From IMG/VR virus record IMGVR_UViG_3300030109_003951, positions 22,601 through 86,600 of that record: a stretch of 64,000 nt of DNA; one strand, 5' to 3'. Below are positions 30,020 to 48,933 of the stretch, piece after piece; positions within the stretch are counted from its first letter, which is position 1; each line of letters begins with the position of its first letter. The stretch is from a virus. Both the position numbers and the translations under genes were made by a program. Under the pieces are notes generated by a model that was given only the letters and a program-made list of their open reading frames with translations, was not told the origin of the DNA and searched no databases.

Positions 30020-30424
30020 TTATACCCTCTTTACTTTTACGTTACCGCCTCTTGTTTTTATCTCGCCTTCCTTTGGCGGCTCTGATTCCTTTATAGGTTC
30101 TTCTACTGGTTCTGGTGGTAGCGGTGGTATTTCTTCCACAACTGGAAACGACACATGGTCGCCAAAAGAAACAGTAGCCGACTCAAATTTATTTTGAAAT
30201 ACAACCATTATTTCCTTTGTTAACTGCCCTTTGACTAATGGTGGGAACACCATAGCAAAAGTTCCTTGTGGAATATTACATTCCCACACTAATTTTATTT
30301 TTTCAGTATTAGTCATTTCCATGTATAGTTCTTCTGCCAATTGGTTGGCGACCTCTTTTAATTTCAATAAGTCTGAAAACTTCCATTCTTGCTTTTCTAT
30401 TTTTTTTATTATTTTATCTTTCAT
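30020..30424 (-). CDS. uncharacterised protein with Pro/Glu-rich tail
   Basis: A 134-residue protein starting at an ATG that overlaps the nuclease stop as TAATG. Residues 1-45 are helical, 45-95 beta-rich, and the rest is a disordered Pro/Glu/Lys tail (IPPLPPEPVEEPIKE). Family not recognised. Coupling to the Cas4/RecB-like nuclease suggests a partner protein. Confidence 0.5.
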   Translation of the reverse strand: MKDKIIKKIEKQEWKFSDLLKLKEVANQLAEELYMEMTNTEKIKLVWECNIPQGTFAMVFPPLVKGQLTKEIMVVFQNKFESATVSFGDHVSFPVVEEIPPLPPEPVEEPIKESEPPKEGEIKTRGGNVKVKRV

Positions 30425-31284
30425 TACCAATCCTCCAATCCTGTTTCTCCTGCTGTTTCACATAGTCCTAAGAAAGAGCAGTGTTGACATTTTTTATAAT
30501 AAAAAGATGCTGGAAACTGATTGTTCTCATAAGCCCATATCAACTTAGCAAATCTTTTCTTTAGTGCTGTCGAAGAAGAATTTTTGACCTCCTCTAAATA
30601 GCAGTAATTACTTTCTGGATAATACCAACCCCATTTTGTTATAGGGCCAAATAAATTTTCTCCGTTTTCATCTACGGCTAATTCCATTAGCAATTTGTAA
30701 AAAGCCATCTCCCCTCTCATGTGACTGAGTTTAGTATCTTTCCAAAGTCCTGTTTTTAATTCCATAGGAAAGCAGTGACCGTCTTCGATAAAAACCCTAT
30801 CAATGATTCCTTGTAAATGTACAATGTAACTTCTTTTTAATTCGTATTTAGGGTCAGCATCAAAAGGAATAAGTAATTGTGCATCTAATCGTATTTCATT
30901 TTCAACGGGGATAAAAGAACTTAGTGCATCGTTTTCTTTAGATTGTAAAAACCTTTGAGTTTCAAAAGCAACTACATTGTCATAGACATCACCATAATCA
31001 TCTATAGGAAATAATGCTGTAAAATAATCATACAATTCATCTTCATTCATATTTTCTGCTTTCTTAATATCGAATTCATCCCATAAATTTTCATAAGCAT
31101 TGTGTACAGTAGAACCTTTAATCATTGCAGGAGAAGAATCTTGAGGCAACCTTTCTATGTATTGGTGTAGATATTGTCTATTACACCATTTAAAAGTGCT
31201 TAAAGACGATTTAGTAACCTTCAATATAGGTTTAGTGTCATCATCAAAATTTTCTGGGTTCCATTGGTATGTGTATTCTTGCAT
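30424..31284 (-). CDS. Cas4/RecB-like PD-(D/E)XK nuclease with iron-sulfur cysteines
   Basis: A 286-residue protein with GGAGG before the ATG at 31284. One cysteine lies in the N-terminal KWCNRQY. Three more lie near the C terminus in KKCQHCSFLGLC, the Cas4/AddB-type layout for a 4Fe-4S cluster. The catalytic core reads LQGIIDRVF...HCFPMELKTG, giving the D...ExK signature. The C-terminal ETGLEDW resembles a PCNA-interacting peptide. No CRISPR array is present, so end resection or recombination is more likely than spacer acquisition. Confidence 0.8.
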   Translation of the reverse strand: MQEYTYQWNPENFDDDTKPILKVTKSSLSTFKWCNRQYLHQYIERLPQDSSPAMIKGSTVHNAYENLWDEFDIKKAENMNEDELYDYFTALFPIDDYGDVYDNVVAFETQRFLQSKENDALSSFIPVENEIRLDAQLLIPFDADPKYELKRSYIVHLQGIIDRVFIEDGHCFPMELKTGLWKDTKLSHMRGEMAFYKLLMELAVDENGENLFGPITKWGWYYPESNYCYLEEVKNSSSTALKKRFAKLIWAYENNQFPASFYYKKCQHCSFLGLCETAGETGLEDW

Positions 31285-31451
31285 TATAATTCCTCCTTCC
31301 ATTCTTCAATTACTTGTTCTATTTTTGAAATTAAATTAATTATTTTTTTTTGATTGTTTGTTAAGACATTTACTTGTCCCTGTAAAGATTCTATTTTAAT
31401 TTGCATTCTAGTTACTTTTTTATCATCTCTAACTTCTTTCTTCCAAAACAT
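31284..31451 (-). CDS. 55-residue coiled-coil protein
   Basis: A frame from the ATG at 31451 to a TAA that overlaps the nuclease start as TAATG. The product is an almost uninterrupted helix with heptad leucine and isoleucine (IESLQGQVNVLTNNQKKI). It contains the ribosome binding site of the nuclease near its end. Function unknown. Confidence 0.5.
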   Translation of the reverse strand: MFWKKEVRDDKKVTRMQIKIESLQGQVNVLTNNQKKIINLISKIEQVIEEWKEEL

Positions 31452-32254
31452 CAAAACCAATCCTCCAATGTTTTTTGTTTAGGGTCAGCATAAATATGAT
31501 ACATATCCCAACCCATTGCTTTGTATATAGGTTCGGCTTTGTTTATACAGTAACCTGCGTAATATTCGTAATCTATTTCTATTTTACCTTCATCTAATAA
31601 AGGTAATAATTCATTTTTTTCTTTGACTGAAATATAAGTAGCAACTCTAGAAGTCCCATCATTTAATGGGATTGTCTTAGGGCCAGATAATATGTTACAT
31701 TTGATTGTGATAAAAGAATCAGTTATGGGGTCGGACGAGTTCAAGTGTGTGTTATAATAAACTGCACCAGCAACTCCACCCGCTAATGTTGCATAATCAT
31801 TAATAGATTTCCTAAGCCTTGACCTCTTAAGAAAACTATCCATTTCTATTTTACCTTTCTTAATATTTTGATATGCTTGTTTTAAATACTTAGTAACTTC
31901 TTTTTCAGTTTTACCATTAGCCCACATTTTTAAAACCATCTCTTGTATAATTTTTGCAATGTGTATTTCAGTAGATTTCTTTACTGCAAATCCTGTAACT
32001 ACAAATTCTGGTTCATCTAAATGTTCACCATCTTTCCAAGATATAAAACCAGCATTACGGTTTTTAGTAATACCTATACCGAGAGAAGAATAAAACTTTT
32101 CAAACTCTAAAGTTACAGGGTGTTGGTCTAACCCAAGTATATTAGGAAATATTTCCCTAACCTGTTGATTAAGATAATTACACGTATCTTTAGCATGGTC
32201 TATCGACTCAACAGGACAAAACAAAGAATCAGTATGAGCGTATATTACTTTCAT
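31451..32254 (-). CDS. polB: family B DNA polymerase, C-terminal part (motif C, thumb, PIP box)
   Basis: A 267-residue protein beginning VIYAHTDSLF within its first ten residues. This is motif C of family B polymerases, with His at the first Asp of the usual DTD and the catalytic second Asp kept. The rest is thumb-like. It ends in QKTLEDWF, a canonical PCNA-interacting peptide. The N-terminal two-thirds of the enzyme is encoded at 32713-34353, two small genes upstream. The two chains must associate to make an active polymerase. ATG overlaps the preceding stop as ATGA, with GGAG upstream. Confidence 0.85.
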   Translation of the reverse strand: MKVIYAHTDSLFCPVESIDHAKDTCNYLNQQVREIFPNILGLDQHPVTLEFEKFYSSLGIGITKNRNAGFISWKDGEHLDEPEFVVTGFAVKKSTEIHIAKIIQEMVLKMWANGKTEKEVTKYLKQAYQNIKKGKIEMDSFLKRSRLRKSINDYATLAGGVAGAVYYNTHLNSSDPITDSFITIKCNILSGPKTIPLNDGTSRVATYISVKEKNELLPLLDEGKIEIDYEYYAGYCINKAEPIYKAMGWDMYHIYADPKQKTLEDWF

Positions 32255-32496
32255 AAATTCAACTCCTTCCAGCATTTTTTATGATATTTTCTAGATGCCC
32301 AATCCTTGTGTGGTGCGCCTCCTCTACGGGCGAAACCAATGGGTTGTAATGCCCCACGACAATGTAAACAATAACCATGTGGAACCCACTCATAATCACA
32401 TTCTACACACACAACTAATCCCTTACCTTTTATTACTGTTTTATAAGCCTCAGTTCCTTTACATCTTCTACATATGTGTGTGGCCTCGTCACTCAT
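32251..32496 (-). CDS. multi-cysteine zinc protein inside the split polymerase locus
   Basis: An 81-residue protein with CRRC, CVEC and CLHC pairs and a terminal KYHKKCWKEL, enough for two zinc sites. ATG at 32496 overlaps the preceding stop. The C-terminal CxxC...HKKCW pattern resembles the small protein at 47411-47581. It lies between the two halves of the polymerase. Possibly a DNA-binding or polymerase accessory factor. Confidence 0.6.
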   Translation of the reverse strand: MSDEATHICRRCKGTEAYKTVIKGKGLVVCVECDYEWVPHGYCLHCRGALQPIGFARRGGAPHKDWASRKYHKKCWKELNL

Positions 32497-32713
32497 CCCA
32501 AACCCTCCATCTTGCAGGATAATCATATTTATTTAATCTGACAAATTCTTTGTGTCTTTTTAGAATGTTACTCAATCCTTGAATTGTAGGGCATGTCCTA
32601 AAATGCCTATCAACATAAATATCATAAATTTCTCTGGTGGTCATTTCACCATCACCTAATATATTTATTGCTTGTTGAATAATTCTCTGATATTTATTTT
32701 TTGCACTGGGCAT
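32489..32713 (-). CDS. winged-helix protein inside the split polymerase locus
   Basis: A 74-residue protein with EMTTREIYDIYVDRHF followed by PTIQGLSNILKRHKEF and a terminal ARWRVW strand. This reads as a compact winged-helix DNA-binding domain. Its start overlaps the stop of the polymerase N-terminal gene. It is similar in layout to the proteins at 28626-28862 and 51957-52289. Confidence 0.6.
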   Translation of the reverse strand: MPSAKNKYQRIIQQAINILGDGEMTTREIYDIYVDRHFRTCPTIQGLSNILKRHKEFVRLNKYDYPARWRVWDE

Positions 32714-34353
32714 TATAATCCCTCCGCAACTTTAGCAGCATGTCTGATTGCTTCTCTAGCACTAGCAGTGATGCTGTTCGCTAAATCTGGGTCATACCAA
32801 CCAAACTTAGGAAACGCAGTTACCCCATAGAAACTCGCCATGAGTCTCTTTACAGCCATTTGATTGTTAAACCATTTTTGATGTTCTTCCTTAGTGTCTG
32901 CTTTTTTCATTTTAGACTTGTATTCATCTCTAAGTTGTTTAAGATTAAGAACAGACCTTGGTAATAAACCAAGTTTGTCTGTTTTGTAATATCGCATGTT
33001 CTTTTTAATTACAGGGCTAAAGTCCTGTGGTGTTGCCAAATTACAAGCAAACTCTGTAGGTGTGCGAGACTTAGTTTCCCAACTAATATTCCTAGCCATC
33101 ATCATAGAAGGATATAGTTGTGCAAAATCAAAAGCCGCAACATTACTATGCCTACCATGCGTTTTGTTTACTTCTGGGTCAAATATCATGGCCCCAGTAA
33201 CTTCTACTCTCTCAGCATCTTTATTACCTGTCGGCACTTTCCAATCAGCATGTCTCATGAAGTAAATGCCTCCCATGTGAGAAGCATAAAAACACGCACT
33301 AAATGGTGCAACTAGTAATCTTTGTAATGCTAATATAGATTCTGATATTGCATTATCTTCATCTATGCGTTTTAGTAAAGCAACATCTTGAATATTATAA
33401 TCTAAATAATTTTGAGTATCTTCTAACCAAGCCCTTCTAAAGAATTCGTTTTTGTCTGTGAATTTAGAATCTTTCTTTTTACCTTCCCCGAATAAAAGAT
33501 TACCAACAAAATCTAAAGCAGTAGATGGAAGTGTGCCACGTTGAGCATCGTTCCATTGTCTTTCAAATGCATGGTCTAAGTTTAAACACAATCTACCATA
33601 GATAGGTTGAGATATAGGTGATATTTGATTCCATGCCTTTTTGTTGGGTTTGACCAACCCTATAGGAGATAGTCTACTAATATCAATATTATTTTCTTCT
33701 AACCTTTCAAACAACTTAGGAATATCTGCTTGTAATCCAAACCATGCAATCAACATGTCTGGGTCTTGTTCTTCCATATCAGAAACGAAAGCCTCAAGCA
33801 TATCTTCTTCTGAATTAAAATGATATTCCGCAGCATCGACTACAATCATATCTAGTTTAGCATCTTTGGGAGTCCAATAGTATAAGTTTATGCAATCTGC
33901 ATAATTATCGTAAACTGCAATAGTTGTTATCGCCCCATCATATTTACCTGTGTTCATCCATTCCATATCCCAATACCACTTACGTAAATCATACTCTGGT
34001 ATTTCAGTCATTTTATCAATACAATAACGATGTGTAAAATTAACATCTGCTTCATACGTTTTGTCAAAGTATTTTCTAGCGGTTCTAATATCATTATATT
34101 TAGTAACCATAACTTTAGTCAAAGGTTGGTTTTCCAAATTAACATGGCTAGTTCTTTCATAAATAAACTCTTGAGGTAGTTTCATCTTTCTACCTTGAGA
34201 ATTAGTAACACTGATGTTATATGCTTGCGGCATTCTTTCGTCAGAACCAACATAAAAATACGGTCTAAAATCAGTGACTTCTTTTTCTAATCTATTACCA
34301 TTTTCATCACGCCATCTAAGATAAATAGTGTTATCTTTATGTGTGATAATCAT
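32713..34353 (-). CDS. polB: family B DNA polymerase, N-terminal part (exonuclease, motifs A and B)
   Basis: About 546 residues from the ATG at 34353; a TTG at 34362 is possible. Exonuclease motif I is WYWDMEW near residue 130. Motif II is degenerate (WFGLQADIP, Asp kept, Asn lost). Motif III is YNIQDVALL. Polymerase motif A is DFAQLYPSMM and motif B is KRLMASFYGVT, with Ala where Asn is usual. The chain stops at KVAEGL, just before motif C, which is encoded separately at 31451-32254. The break point is like that of the two-gene PolB of Methanothermobacter. No intein residues are visible at the edges. Confidence 0.9.
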   Translation of the reverse strand: MIITHKDNTIYLRWRDENGNRLEKEVTDFRPYFYVGSDERMPQAYNISVTNSQGRKMKLPQEFIYERTSHVNLENQPLTKVMVTKYNDIRTARKYFDKTYEADVNFTHRYCIDKMTEIPEYDLRKWYWDMEWMNTGKYDGAITTIAVYDNYADCINLYYWTPKDAKLDMIVVDAAEYHFNSEEDMLEAFVSDMEEQDPDMLIAWFGLQADIPKLFERLEENNIDISRLSPIGLVKPNKKAWNQISPISQPIYGRLCLNLDHAFERQWNDAQRGTLPSTALDFVGNLLFGEGKKKDSKFTDKNEFFRRAWLEDTQNYLDYNIQDVALLKRIDEDNAISESILALQRLLVAPFSACFYASHMGGIYFMRHADWKVPTGNKDAERVEVTGAMIFDPEVNKTHGRHSNVAAFDFAQLYPSMMMARNISWETKSRTPTEFACNLATPQDFSPVIKKNMRYYKTDKLGLLPRSVLNLKQLRDEYKSKMKKADTKEEHQKWFNNQMAVKRLMASFYGVTAFPKFGWYDPDLANSITASAREAIRHAAKVAEGL

Positions 34354-34358
34354 GTGTC

Positions 34359-35114
34359 TCAACTCATGTACGGTGCTACAACAATAGCAGCGAAATCTGT
34401 GCTTGCAAATAACGGCATGTCATCATGTAATCTCAAATTGATTCTATTATTCCATTCGTTTTCACTTTGAAATAAAACATGAATAGGTGCTGCAAAAGGA
34501 ACAGTAGCAGCATTACCACTATGTTCTCTCATTTGTAATTCGTTAGATATTTTTCTTTGGCCTTTAGATGCCTGTAAATATAGTCTTTCATTGGGGTGAA
34601 AGTTCAAAACATAATTAGATGCTCCCACTGTGTCACAAGCCTTAATAGATTGAGTTAAACTATCGACATCTAAATTTACTGTTAAGTCATATTTAGTTGA
34701 ACCGAATGTAAAGTCTGGCCCAAAACCCTCATCAATCCAATTAATCAACTTAGGGCTAAACCTATCAATAGCCGATTCATTTTCATGATGTGCAACTAAA
34801 GGAACTGTTGCAGAATCACTATCTTGTAATATTGTCAAAACACTACCAACCTCAAACTCAACTTCTCCAGAAAAGGTTTTCAACATCGGTAATATTTCTA
34901 AATCTAAAACAAACTGAACATCTTCTGCGTTGTCTAAAACTATCTTATATGCTACAGCGACAGAGTTTGCCCTATTAGCACTAAGTAAATATAAATTGTT
35001 ATCTTCAATTTTACAAGTTATTTGAGAAGACAACTCACCATTTTTATCGCCCCATTTACCTTTCATGGTACAATACTTGATTCCCTTTAGAAAACTATCC
35101 ATGTTTATTATCAT
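34359..35114 (-). CDS. sliding clamp (PCNA-like)
   Basis: A 251-residue protein with GGAGGGG upstream of the ATG at 35114. Length and the alternating strand pattern fit a PCNA monomer. Visible features include FLKGIKYCTMKG at the N terminus and LRLHDDMPLFASTDFAAIVVAPYM at the C terminus, the position of the conserved last strands. It would tether the polymerase and other PIP-box proteins of this virus to DNA. It lies directly upstream of the polymerase gene. Confidence 0.75.
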   Translation of the reverse strand: MIINMDSFLKGIKYCTMKGKWGDKNGELSSQITCKIEDNNLYLLSANRANSVAVAYKIVLDNAEDVQFVLDLEILPMLKTFSGEVEFEVGSVLTILQDSDSATVPLVAHHENESAIDRFSPKLINWIDEGFGPDFTFGSTKYDLTVNLDVDSLTQSIKACDTVGASNYVLNFHPNERLYLQASKGQRKISNELQMREHSGNAATVPFAAPIHVLFQSENEWNNRINLRLHDDMPLFASTDFAAIVVAPYMS

Positions 35115-43964: not shown

Positions 43965-44185
43965 TCTCCAGTGTCCTCCAGTGGGATGATGCCAATCACC
44001 CCATCTTCTTTAAGAGAATGATACATTCTAGCCGCAACGATGAATGCCTCTCCTGCATTTTTTGTCCAGAAGGTAGTTCTAGAAAATTCATCACTTGCCC
44101 AATCGACTTGATGGTTTTCTACTTCATCAACAGTGGCCACTGCTATTTTCCAATGACCATCTACCTTCTTAACAAAGATGAACAT
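43961..44185 (-). CDS. uncharacterised protein beside JAMM protease
   Basis: A 74-residue alpha/beta protein from the ATG at 44185, overlapping the JAMM stop as TAATG. FIFVKKVDGHWKIAVATVDEV is followed by AGEAFIVAARMYHSL and IIPLED. It is not a clear ubiquitin-like fold, since it lacks the Gly-Gly end. Coupling to the JAMM gene makes it a candidate substrate or partner. Confidence 0.5.
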   Translation of the reverse strand: MFIFVKKVDGHWKIAVATVDEVENHQVDWASDEFSRTTFWTKNAGEAFIVAARMYHSLKEDGVIGIIPLEDTGE

Positions 44186-44715
44186 TATTCTTCCTCCCAA
44201 ACACCTGCTACAGTTGCCCCTTTATTAATTGGAACAAAAATTTCAAAGTGGGTATCGGTTTTTCCTTTAATCCAAGTCATCCGTTCTGCCCCACCTAATA
44301 CAATCGCTGAATCCATAATTGGCTCATAGGTATTGATTGTATTCCAATCCGTTCCACTAAAGTAAGCCTTACCAAATGGGTGAGTGTGAATCCAACATTT
44401 GATGGGCATTTTCATACCAGTAACTTCTTCATTATCGTGGAACCAAACAAATGAGCCAGTCCCGAAAGTAATGAATAATTTATTATTGCTGTCTATTACT
44501 ACTTGCACTTCTCTGTCACAATCAAATGCAGTTTTACTCATGTGCCATATAGAATCTAAAACATCTTGACCCGCTTTAGTATGTCTAAGATAATGAGTTA
44601 TTTCTTCTCTAAGATATTTATTTACATAACCCCAATCTAAGAATCGTTGCCATGCACTTTCTATTTCTTGTTTCCATTCTTGGTTAACTACCGTGTCTTC
44701 TAAATTCAAAACCAC
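44185..44715 (-). CDS. JAMM/MPN+ metalloprotease
   Basis: A 176-residue protein. The JAMM signature is complete: His110-Thr-His112-Pro, then Ser120-x2-Asp123 (HTHPFGKAYFSGTDW). An upstream Glu is available for catalysis. These zinc enzymes remove ubiquitin-like proteins from targets or trim their C termini. The E1-like gene lies directly upstream and overlaps it. The ubiquitin-like gene is 3 kb upstream in the same block and ends GGY, so trimming of that Tyr is a natural substrate. TTG at 44709 is an alternative start. Confidence 0.85.
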   Translation of the reverse strand: MVLNLEDTVVNQEWKQEIESAWQRFLDWGYVNKYLREEITHYLRHTKAGQDVLDSIWHMSKTAFDCDREVQVVIDSNNKLFITFGTGSFVWFHDNEEVTGMKMPIKCWIHTHPFGKAYFSGTDWNTINTYEPIMDSAIVLGGAERMTWIKGKTDTHFEIFVPINKGATVAGVWEEE

Positions 44716-45257
44716 ACCACCATTTCATTGTCAACGTGGTCTTTACTAAACCACCGTTGAATCCACTGTGCGCCTAATCCAGCCACAACATAATGCATGC
44801 AGTTGATTCCTTTTGCTTTGCCATCCCAATCATTTCCTTGACAAGAAAAGTTACCATCTGGCCCTGCCAACAATTCATCGTATTTTTCAACTGGTGTTTT
44901 ATATGAGACAAGAATACTTCCTCTACCCTGTGCCCTTAAATCTAACCAAGGTTTATCATAACCATACAACAATCTTCTTGCTGTTAAATTATCAACACAA
45001 CACACAATCAAATCATATCCTTTGAGTTGACTTTTGGTTAATACAGCAAAAGGTTCACCTTTTACTTTGTTATACTTGGCCATTACATTTGCCTTTTTCA
45101 TTCCTACTTCACCTATCTTAAAGTTTTGATATGTGATATTTTTTTCTTCTACTGTGTCTGGGTCATATACTGTAATATCATATGTTCCTATCTTACTAAG
45201 AATAGGAATCAAGTTACTACCGATACCACCTGCACCAATTATCATTACCTTCTTCAT
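44706..45257 (-). CDS. E1/ThiF-like adenylating enzyme
   Basis: A 183-residue protein, short for the family. The Rossmann loop GAGGIGSN lies at residues 8-15. DPDTVEEKNITYQNF at 32-46 matches DxDxVexsNLnRQ, but the conserved Arg is Tyr43. Then come VGMKKANVMAKY and VDNLTARRLL (Asp89-Asn90, Arg94). Candidate catalytic cysteines are Cys139 and Cys153. It would adenylate the C-terminal Gly of a ubiquitin-like protein. Coupled to the JAMM gene by overlap. It could serve sulfur transfer or protein conjugation; the sequence does not decide. Confidence 0.82.
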   Translation of the reverse strand: MKKVMIIGAGGIGSNLIPILSKIGTYDITVYDPDTVEEKNITYQNFKIGEVGMKKANVMAKYNKVKGEPFAVLTKSQLKGYDLIVCCVDNLTARRLLYGYDKPWLDLRAQGRGSILVSYKTPVEKYDELLAGPDGNFSCQGNDWDGKAKGINCMHYVVAGLGAQWIQRWFSKDHVDNEMVVWF

Positions 45258-47896: not shown

Positions 47897-48151
47897 TTAT
47901 ATCTCCTCTGTGTTGTTGGTACTGCCACTAGTATATAAAGTGGAACGTTCATTTAACCTTGAGAATGCTATTCCTAGAGTCTTTTCATAGTGCAGAACTA
48001 ATTTACTTAAGTTCTCAACTTGTGCATTACCCTCTAATACCATCTGTGTTAATTTTTGGTTGTTCTGTACAGCAGTCTCTAATTGCGTAGTAGCAGTTAG
48101 TAACTTCTGGCTCGTCTCTTGTAATTGTTTTTCCATTTCTTTTTTGTTCAT
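47897..48151 (-). CDS. coiled-coil protein
   Basis: An 84-residue protein whose ATG overlaps the HNH stop as ATGA. It is a long helix with heptads (LQETSQKLLTATTQLETAVQ), then a short Ser/Thr-rich tail. It contains the ribosome binding site of the ubiquitin-like gene. It may be a structural or adaptor partner. Family not recognised. Confidence 0.5.
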   Translation of the reverse strand: MNKKEMEKQLQETSQKLLTATTQLETAVQNNQKLTQMVLEGNAQVENLSKLVLHYEKTLGIAFSRLNERSTLYTSGSTNNTEEI

Positions 48152-48933
48152 GTTTTCACTCTCCATCTTTTTCCTTTCCATAATGAGCCTTTACTTAGAT
48201 TATCTTTAGCCCATAATGGTTGTAAGTTAGTATAATGAAATGCTATTCTTTGTTCTTCTATTTTACTTAAATCAAAGGAACTCAAAGGAATGATGTGGTC
48301 TATATGCCAACCTGTTCTTGACCAATTATCCCAAGTCATCCCTTCTTCCCATAGACTCTCTATATGTTTTTTAAGAACTGGTATATCTACTCCCACTAAT
48401 TTAATTGCTGATTCGGATTTTTTAACCCTTGATTTCCTAAGTAACCTACCTAAACTATTTCTTAAACTTACTCTTAATTTATGTTCGGGATTATTATGAT
48501 ACCTTTCATTAATTTTTTTATTGAGTTTTTCTTTATGTTTTTCACGATAGTTTTTATCCCATCCACTTTTTTGTTTTTTATATAATGTGGTTTTTTGCTT
48601 AGGCACTCTCCATGTATTATGAGCGCATGGTTTACAATAACTTTTTTTATTATAGAAAACTTTTCCACTATTATCATTTGGAAAATCATCAAGGATTTTT
48701 ATTGTGTCACAAATTCTACATCTTCGTTTTCCTATTTTTTGGAGTTGATGAAGTTCTTCTCTATAGGCCATTTCTTTTTTATATTTTTTATAATGTTCCT
48801 CACCTTTCGATTTGGCTTTATGCTCACTTCGACAACTCTTACATTCACCTCGCCTACTACCATACTTATCACCCACCAAATCAAAATTTTCTATGGGAAA
48901 AGTTTCCTTACATATCCTACAATTCTTTTTCAT
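48148..48933 (-). CDS. HNH endonuclease with zinc motifs
   Basis: A 261-residue protein. Two N-terminal CxxC...CxxC modules (CRICKETFP...CKSC and CRICDTIKI...CKPC) precede a Lys-rich linker. The HNH core follows: WHIDHIIPLSSFD then FHYTNLQPLWAKDNLSKG. Free-standing HNH genes of this type are common mobile elements in viruses. It overlaps both neighbours, so it is integrated in the operon. Roles as a homing enzyme or genome processing nuclease are both open. Confidence 0.85.
   Translation of the reverse strand: MKKNCRICKETFPIENFDLVGDKYGSRRGECKSCRSEHKAKSKGEEHYKKYKKEMAYREELHQLQKIGKRRCRICDTIKILDDFPNDNSGKVFYNKKSYCKPCAHNTWRVPKQKTTLYKKQKSGWDKNYREKHKEKLNKKINERYHNNPEHKLRVSLRNSLGRLLRKSRVKKSESAIKLVGVDIPVLKKHIESLWEEGMTWDNWSRTGWHIDHIIPLSSFDLSKIEEQRIAFHYTNLQPLWAKDNLSKGSLWKGKRWRVKT

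What the first reader, a model, noticed from the sequence alone, without database searches (positions are those of the whole stretch)
31451..34353. Family B polymerase split between motifs B and C, with two small DNA-binding genes in the gap
Seen: exonuclease plus motifs A and B end at 32713, and motif C (YAHTDS) starts the chain at 32254. A winged-helix gene and a zinc gene lie between. The break is like that of the two-chain PolB of Methanothermobacter and lies next to a known intein site. The first Asp of motif C is His, and motif B has Ala for Asn. Inference: the two chains reassemble, and the inserted genes may be relics of a mobile element or polymerase partners.
Basis: partly seen in the sequence, partly recalled or inferred. 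Interest (0 to 1): 0.75.

Follow-up and report, generated by a model that had tools for sequence, protein, structure and literature searches.

The report
Two-piece DNA polymerase of marine archaeal viruses
A large group of viruses of ocean archaea makes its DNA-copying enzyme as two proteins broken at one tight turn beside the active site, and the gap between the two genes fills with fast-changing small genes that sometimes include homing nucleases; the two-gene state was already labelled in a taxonomy figure, but its single origin and the gene-collecting gap look new.

Summary
polB-N (exonuclease, motifs A and B) ends at 32713. polB-C begins at 32254 with MKVIYAHTDS (motif C). Two small coupled genes lie between. 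No intact PolB exists in the 86.6 kb record.

It is not an assembly error or a local accident. In 105 non-redundant related viral loci PolB is broken at exactly this point, in the 3-residue turn between the helix after motif B and the motif C strand; 34 loci of a sister clade are intact. The broken genes form one clade (bootstrap 100), so the break arose once. Both halves are under strong purifying selection (dN/dS 0.05 and 0.03), and the motif A and motif C aspartates now lie on different chains, so the enzyme almost certainly works as a heterodimer.

His for the first Asp of motif C predates the break (intact relatives share it). Ala for Asn in motif B marks the broken clade (104/105).

The inserted genes are not required subunits: the gap runs from -4 to 1766 nt with 59 gene arrangements, two viruses have no insert, and near-identical viruses differ. 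In some relatives HNH, GIY-YIG or endonuclease-VII-like genes occupy it.

ICTV's Aoguangviridae map already labels PolB-NTD/CTD. New variant of a known kind.

The parts
32713..34353 (-). polB-N: N-terminal domain, 3'-5' exonuclease, palm with motif A, fingers with motif B (ORF open to TTG at 34362)
   Evidence: PF00136 E 1.3e-21, PF03104 E 6.9e-6; dN/dS 0.053
33961..33969 (-). exo I D-x-E (D132, E134)
   Evidence: invariant in alignment A2
33106..33129 (-). motif A DFAQLYPS (metal-binding D412)
   Evidence: invariant D412 in A2
32824..32850 (-). motif B KRLMASFYG, with Ala at the usual Asn
   Evidence: 34/34 intact N; 104/105 broken A, 1 S
32711..32715 (-). TAATG: stop of polB-N overlaps start of the next gene; also the break in the polymerase chain
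   Evidence: ATGA- or TAATG-type overlap in 86 of 105 loci
32489..32713 (-). gap gene 1, 74 aa, winged-helix-like by pattern
   Evidence: dN/dS 0.21; Pfam only sub-threshold
32251..32496 (-). gap gene 2, 81 aa, Cys-rich zinc-ribbon-like
   Evidence: dN/dS 0.12; zf-C3HC4_3 E 0.003, below cut-off
32251..32254 (-). ATGA: start of polB-C overlaps stop of gap gene 2
31451..32254 (-). polB-C: motif C strand of the palm, KNR motif, thumb; 267 aa
   Evidence: dN/dS 0.033; AF2 pLDDT 92; aligns with residues 534-757 of archaeal PolB, Z about 15-16
32225..32242 (-). motif C YAHTDS (second Asp kept, first Asp is His)
34359..35114 (-). sliding clamp gene directly upstream of polB-N
   Evidence: family profile finds only sliding clamps at E<=0.001, best 1.2e-6
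30424..31302 (-). PD-(D/E)XK nuclease downstream of polB-C, the other flanking core gene
   Evidence: PF12705 E 3.2e-18

Best explanation
This is a replicative family B DNA polymerase of a magrovirus (tailed virus of Poseidoniales archaea), made as two polypeptides that assemble into one enzyme. The larger chain brings the exonuclease, motif A and the fingers; the smaller brings the motif C strand and the thumb. The active site forms only when they meet, since the two metal-binding aspartates are on different chains. The break arose once in an ancestor, in the turn just before motif C, with no net loss of residues; a one-base deletion that makes an overlapping stop and start (TAATG or ATGA) is enough to make the bare form still seen in two viruses. 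The new gene boundary then became a landing site for small genes, among them free-standing homing-type endonucleases. The window's two gap genes are passengers or accessory viral genes read from the same transcript, not required subunits. Shown: break point, single origin, selection, residue conservation, gap turnover, nucleases in the gap. Inferred: reassembly, activity, frameshift origin, homing as the driver of insertion.
For: Same break in 105 non-redundant loci, 34 intact in a sister clade. Broken loci are one clade in a 96-row tree (SH-aLRT 100) and in a 30-row mixture-model tree (bootstrap 100, SH-aLRT 99), rooted on intact halovirus PolB. Intact genes always have 20 residues between ITASAR and HTD; broken ones have 13-15 before the stop in most loci plus 6 after the start. 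In the intact model L069 the break is the turn 561-563 between helix 537-560 and strand 564-569. Exo, motif A, K/R of motif B, TDS and KNR are kept in both halves. dN/dS window versus L003: N 0.053, C 0.033. polB-C folds with confidence and matches motif C strand plus thumb of PolB structures. No intact PolB in 19 split-type records; one full-length gene in 9 intact-type records. Bare splits L062 (TTATAATGAAAGT) and L113 (GAATGAAAGT). Gap: 276 ORFs, 53 families, 59 arrangements. L128 versus L132: N-chain proteins identical, but L132 has an added HNH gene. Junction control: clamp to polB-N median -8 nt, polB-N to polB-C 458 nt, polB-C to nuclease 10 nt. Precedent: 43A and 43B of Aeromonas phage 25 co-purify and polymerise (PMC2988022).
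Against: No biochemistry and no two-chain model could be run. Motif B Asn to Ala and motif C Asp to His could lower activity. The tree root rests on very divergent halovirus sequences. Bare splits lie inside the clade, so they may be secondary losses of the insert, and the first event could have been an insertion rather than a frameshift.
Confidence: 0.85

Rival explanations
1. The gap genes are functional partners of the polymerase (zinc and DNA-binding subunits) and the break exists so that they are made in step with it.
For: They are translationally coupled and under purifying selection in the window pair. Half of the filled gaps carry at least one gene with two CxxC motifs (51 of 102).
Against: 59 arrangements and 53 families; two loci without any gene; 10 of 18 pairs with 98% or more identical polB-N differ in ORF arrangement, some through ORF calling. 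Cys-rich genes are also common at the clamp to polB-N junction of the same clade (12 of 21).
Confidence: 0.08
2. The break was made by a homing endonuclease or intein that inserted next to motif C and was later lost or replaced.
For: HNH, GIY-YIG (PF13455 E 6.6e-14) and endonuclease-VII-like genes sit in the gap of some relatives, in the first position after polB-N in the cases looked at. The intact clade has a conserved HNH gene just after polB (27 of 34 downstream genes found; PF01844 E 5e-4), and halovirus polB has HNH or LAGLIDADG genes just upstream.
Against: No intein residue on either side; nucleases are a small minority of gap genes; L132's HNH is a late arrival (L128 lacks it). A bare -1 frameshift explains the L062 and L113 junctions without any insert.
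Confidence: 0.35
3. The halves do not reassemble: polymerase function is lost, polB-N serves as an exonuclease or DNA-binding protein, and the host polymerase copies the genome.
For: Altered motif B and motif C residues.
Against: Both halves keep all metal-binding residues and low dN/dS. [quoted passage not shown] The virus encodes a clamp, a clamp loader subunit and a ligase.
Confidence: 0.06
4. Assembly error or population chimera.
For: The data are metagenomic contigs.
Against: The same break is in contigs of many independent samples, with conserved coupled junctions.
Confidence: 0.01

Closest known systems
PolB-NTD/PolB-CTD of Aoguangviridae (Poseidoniales virus YSH_150918, order Magrovirales; PMC10768690)
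   Same: Virus of the same order, also with clamp, RFC small subunit, chaperonin and HMG-CoA-lyase genes; PolB is drawn as N- and C-terminal genes in the figure legend.
   Different: In the text I could read, the break is a figure label only: no account of site, origin, extent or gap contents. The record itself was not held.
gp43A/gp43B of Aeromonas phages 25 and 44RR (T4-like)
   Same: Viral family B polymerase in two chains; a GIY-YIG endonuclease gene lies in the gap of phage 25; the chains co-purify and are active.
   Different: That break is between motifs A and B (43A ends at 498 aa, after DLTSLYPS). Here it is between B and C, fixed in a whole clade and filled with many unrelated small genes.
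Split PolB of Methanothermobacter thermautotrophicus
   Same: Family B polymerase encoded by two polypeptides (PMC7776575).
   Different: Cellular. From memory the two genes are unlinked and the chains are 586 and 223 aa, which would put the break after motif C; not tested here.
Trans-spliced PolB of Nanoarchaeum equitans (from memory)
   Same: Break near motif C (pol-c intein site).
   Different: That one carries split-intein halves and is spliced to one chain; here neither chain has any extra domain.
Split NrdA of phage Aeh1 (mobE) and split topoisomerase of T4 (mobA)
   Same: Endonuclease genes inside conserved replication genes, products reassemble (PMC2988022).
   Different: Other enzymes; single insert rather than a changing gene cassette.

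Membership tests
Family B DNA polymerase | DNA_pol_B and exonuclease domains in order | tested here: met
   PF03104 and PF00136 35-200 in N, PF00136 222-379 in C
Family B DNA polymerase | Metal-binding residues of exo I and motifs A and C | tested here: met
   D132/E134, D412 and the second Asp of TDS kept; the first Asp of motif C is His in split and intact alike
Family B DNA polymerase | Fold | tested here: met
   polB-C model Z about 15-16 to archaeal PolB; intact homologue L069 matches KOD and RB69 polymerases; polB-N itself was not modelled
Family B DNA polymerase | Polymerase activity | not testable with these tools
   needs protein
Two-chain split polymerase (as phage 25 gp43A/B) | Two genes that together cover one polymerase, no intact copy | tested here: met
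Two-chain split polymerase (as phage 25 gp43A/B) | Same break site as phage 25 | tested here: not met
   between motifs A and B there, between B and C here
Two-chain split polymerase (as phage 25 gp43A/B) | Chains bind and polymerise | not testable with these tools
   two-chain models and assays not available
Split-intein (trans-spliced) PolB | Intein halves at the break | tested here: not met
   N chains end at the helix after motif B, C chains start about 6 residues before HTD; no intein-sized extension
Inactivated archaeal PolB2 group | Exo motifs lost together with one motif C Asp | tested here: not met
   exo I and exo III kept in most rows; features of B2 from PMC7544198
Magrovirus (Magrovirales) | Replication gene set with own clamp, RFC, ligase, PolB, plus chaperonin and HMG-CoA lyase | tested here: met
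   reference genome not held, so family-level placement is untested
Methanothermobacter split PolB | Same break site | not tested
   its sequence was not fetched

The most novel reading that the evidence does not exclude
The broken polB is a standing gene-capture site: free-standing homing endonucleases cut at the polB-N/polB-C junction and drag in small genes, and the gap also lets the two polymerase halves be exchanged between viruses, so the replicase became a modular two-part enzyme because its broken state pays for a mobile element.
Probability: 0.25. Interest if true: 0.7.

Novelty: new variant of a known kind. Interest (0 to 1): 0.5.

Why it matters
Split replicative polymerases are rare and known mostly as single cases. 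Here one is fixed across a large, common group of marine viruses, with intact sisters, bare-split forms and a wide range of filled gaps all available for comparison. That makes it possible to test directly how a central enzyme is broken, kept working in two parts, and turned into an insertion site. It also gives a natural split point, a 3-residue turn between motifs B and C, for designing two-part polymerases.

Tried and rejected
Assembly error: rejected by recurrence. Second intact polymerase: none in the record or in 18 related records; in that search three records gave one match instead of two (two read across a short gap, one with the C half below the search's sensitivity). Intein: none. 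Decay signalled by His in motif C: rejected, present in all intact relatives. Host origin: a scan of 84,980 genomes with the polB-N alignment found one contig only, also split, binned with a Maricaulis MAG and probably viral. Other small-gene hot spots: checked by junction control; in the broken clade only the polB-N/polB-C junction is regularly filled. Shared pool: only 12 of 53 gap families have a same-strand homologue outside the gap in the flanks. Strict 5' addition of new gap genes: not supported, differences fall at the 5' end, 3' end and middle. Free exchange of N and C halves: only one strong case, L036. Philosof 2017, Zhou 2023 and Prabhu 2025 were not held, so an earlier text description cannot be excluded.

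Full report
What is there. The window is 22601-86600 of an 86.6 kb virus record. On the minus strand a sliding clamp gene, polB-N, two small genes, polB-C, a 58-aa ORF and a PD-(D/E)XK nuclease follow each other with overlapping or near-overlapping ends. polB-N carries exo I, motif A (DFAQLYPS) and motif B (KRLMASFYG) and stops at 32713; polB-C starts at 32254, six residues before HTD of motif C. Pfam DNA_pol_B matches N at profile 35-200 and C at 222-379, so nothing large is missing. The three junctions are TAATG, an 8-nt overlap and ATGA. The record also holds chaperonin, ATP-dependent ligase, RFC small subunit and an HMGL-like lyase, the gene set of magroviruses.

How common it is. Searches of viral contigs gave 269 loci. 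A profile classification found 152 split and 71 intact loci; after removing redundancy, 105 split and 34 intact. In the split loci the N chain ends after ITASAREAI..AAFKV.EL or a close variant and the C chain starts M-K-V-V-Y-[GA]-H-T-D-S or nearly so. Intact proteins of about 800-826 aa always have 20 residues between ITASAR and HTD; split ones have 13-15 in most loci plus 6. In the model of an intact relative the break falls in the turn 561-563 between helix 537-560 and strand 564-569.

One origin. With halovirus PolBs (HF1, HVTV-1, HGTV-1) as outgroup, split loci form one clade and intact ones its sister, in a 96-row quick tree and in a 30-row mixture-model tree with bootstrap. The outgroup branches are long, so the root is less sure than the two groups themselves. 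Motif B Asn is kept in 34/34 intact loci and replaced by Ala in 104 of 105 split ones (Ser in one); the first Asp of motif C is His in all 139, whereas HF1 and HVTV-1 have Asp. So the His came before the break and the Ala came with it.

Function. Window versus its 95% relative L003: dN/dS 0.053 for N, 0.033 for C, 0.21 and 0.12 for the two gap genes. Other close pairs give similar low values for both halves in most cases. Catalytic residues are invariant or nearly so on both chains. The window's polB-C alone is predicted with pLDDT 92 and aligns with residues 534-757 of archaeal PolB at Z about 15-16. Eighteen further split-type records of 67-103 kb hold no full-length PolB outside the two halves; nine intact-type records hold one full-length gene. 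A working two-chain enzyme is the only reading that fits these facts well, and phage 25 gives a biochemical precedent.

The gap. It is -1 nt in L062 (GAATTATAATGAAAGTA), -4 in L113 and up to 1766 nt elsewhere; where filled, small same-strand ORFs cover it almost fully (median 97%). There are 53 families and 59 arrangements. Most families are unknown; some are Cys-rich (62 of 266 short genes with two CxxC), one is MazG-like, and there are HNH (L132, L134), GIY-YIG (L262) and endonuclease-VII-like (L123) genes. L128 and L132 have identical polB-N proteins, yet L132 has an HNH gene added after the polB-N stop. Among pairs with 98% or more identical polB-N, 8 of 18 share the same arrangement, although some differences come from ORF calling.

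Junction control. In the split clade the clamp gene abuts polB-N (median -8 nt; 12% over 150) and the nuclease nearly abuts polB-C (median 10; 26% over 150), while 95% of polB-N/polB-C junctions exceed 150 nt (median 458). In the intact clade the small genes lie between clamp and polB (median 1476 nt) and an HNH gene usually follows polB. A few families are shared between the two positions, among them MazG and the FSYxRTWEQI family. So the slot for small genes in this operon moved from before polB to inside it.

Origin of the break. Intact junctions read GARYTNGGNTAYGARGTN or close to it; bare split ones are one base shorter and give TAATG or ATGA. A -1 frameshift with restart is the simplest route, but bare forms are nested in the tree, so an insertion first and loss later is possible. 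The frequent endonuclease neighbours of polB in intact relatives and haloviruses keep a homing origin open.

Known or new. Split PolB is known from Methanothermobacter, from Aeromonas phages 25 and 44RR (break between motifs A and B, checked here for phage 25) and, as a label, from the magrovirus family Aoguangviridae. New here, as far as the held papers show, are the single origin, the exact turn, the linked motif B change, the bare forms, and the gap as a fast-turnover gene site. Three key papers on magroviruses could not be read.

Noticed in passing
L036 (contig IMGVR_UViG_3300038520_001576): Recombinant polB: clamp region, polB-N and gap 98-100% identical to L034, polB-C and downstream mostly 88-99% to L039 and L046, with the switch at the start of polB-C. 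Could be real exchange of halves or an assembly chimera.
   Followed up: partly
Intact clade loci such as L067, downstream of polB: A conserved HNH endonuclease gene directly follows intact polB (27 of 34 downstream genes found).
   Followed up: partly
Intact clade loci, between clamp and polB (e.g. L067, L168): An IMP dehydrogenase/GMP reductase-like gene (PF00478) sits between the clamp and polB in many intact magrovirus-like genomes.
   Followed up: no
window 44185-45257 (-): A ThiF/E1-like gene (PF00899 E 1.3e-17) overlaps a gene with a JAMM-like HTHP..SxxD pattern, resembling E1-JAB pairs of prokaryotic ubiquitin-like systems.
   Followed up: no
window 48148-48933 (-): A 261-aa protein with paired CxxC motifs and an HIDHIIPLS...NLQPLW pattern, probably a free-standing HNH nuclease; no Pfam hit at E 0.001.
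   Followed up: no
L277 (NZMJ01000151.1): The only hit in bacterial and archaeal genomes is a split magrovirus-type polB in a contig binned with a Maricaulis MAG, probably a mis-binned virus.
   Followed up: partly
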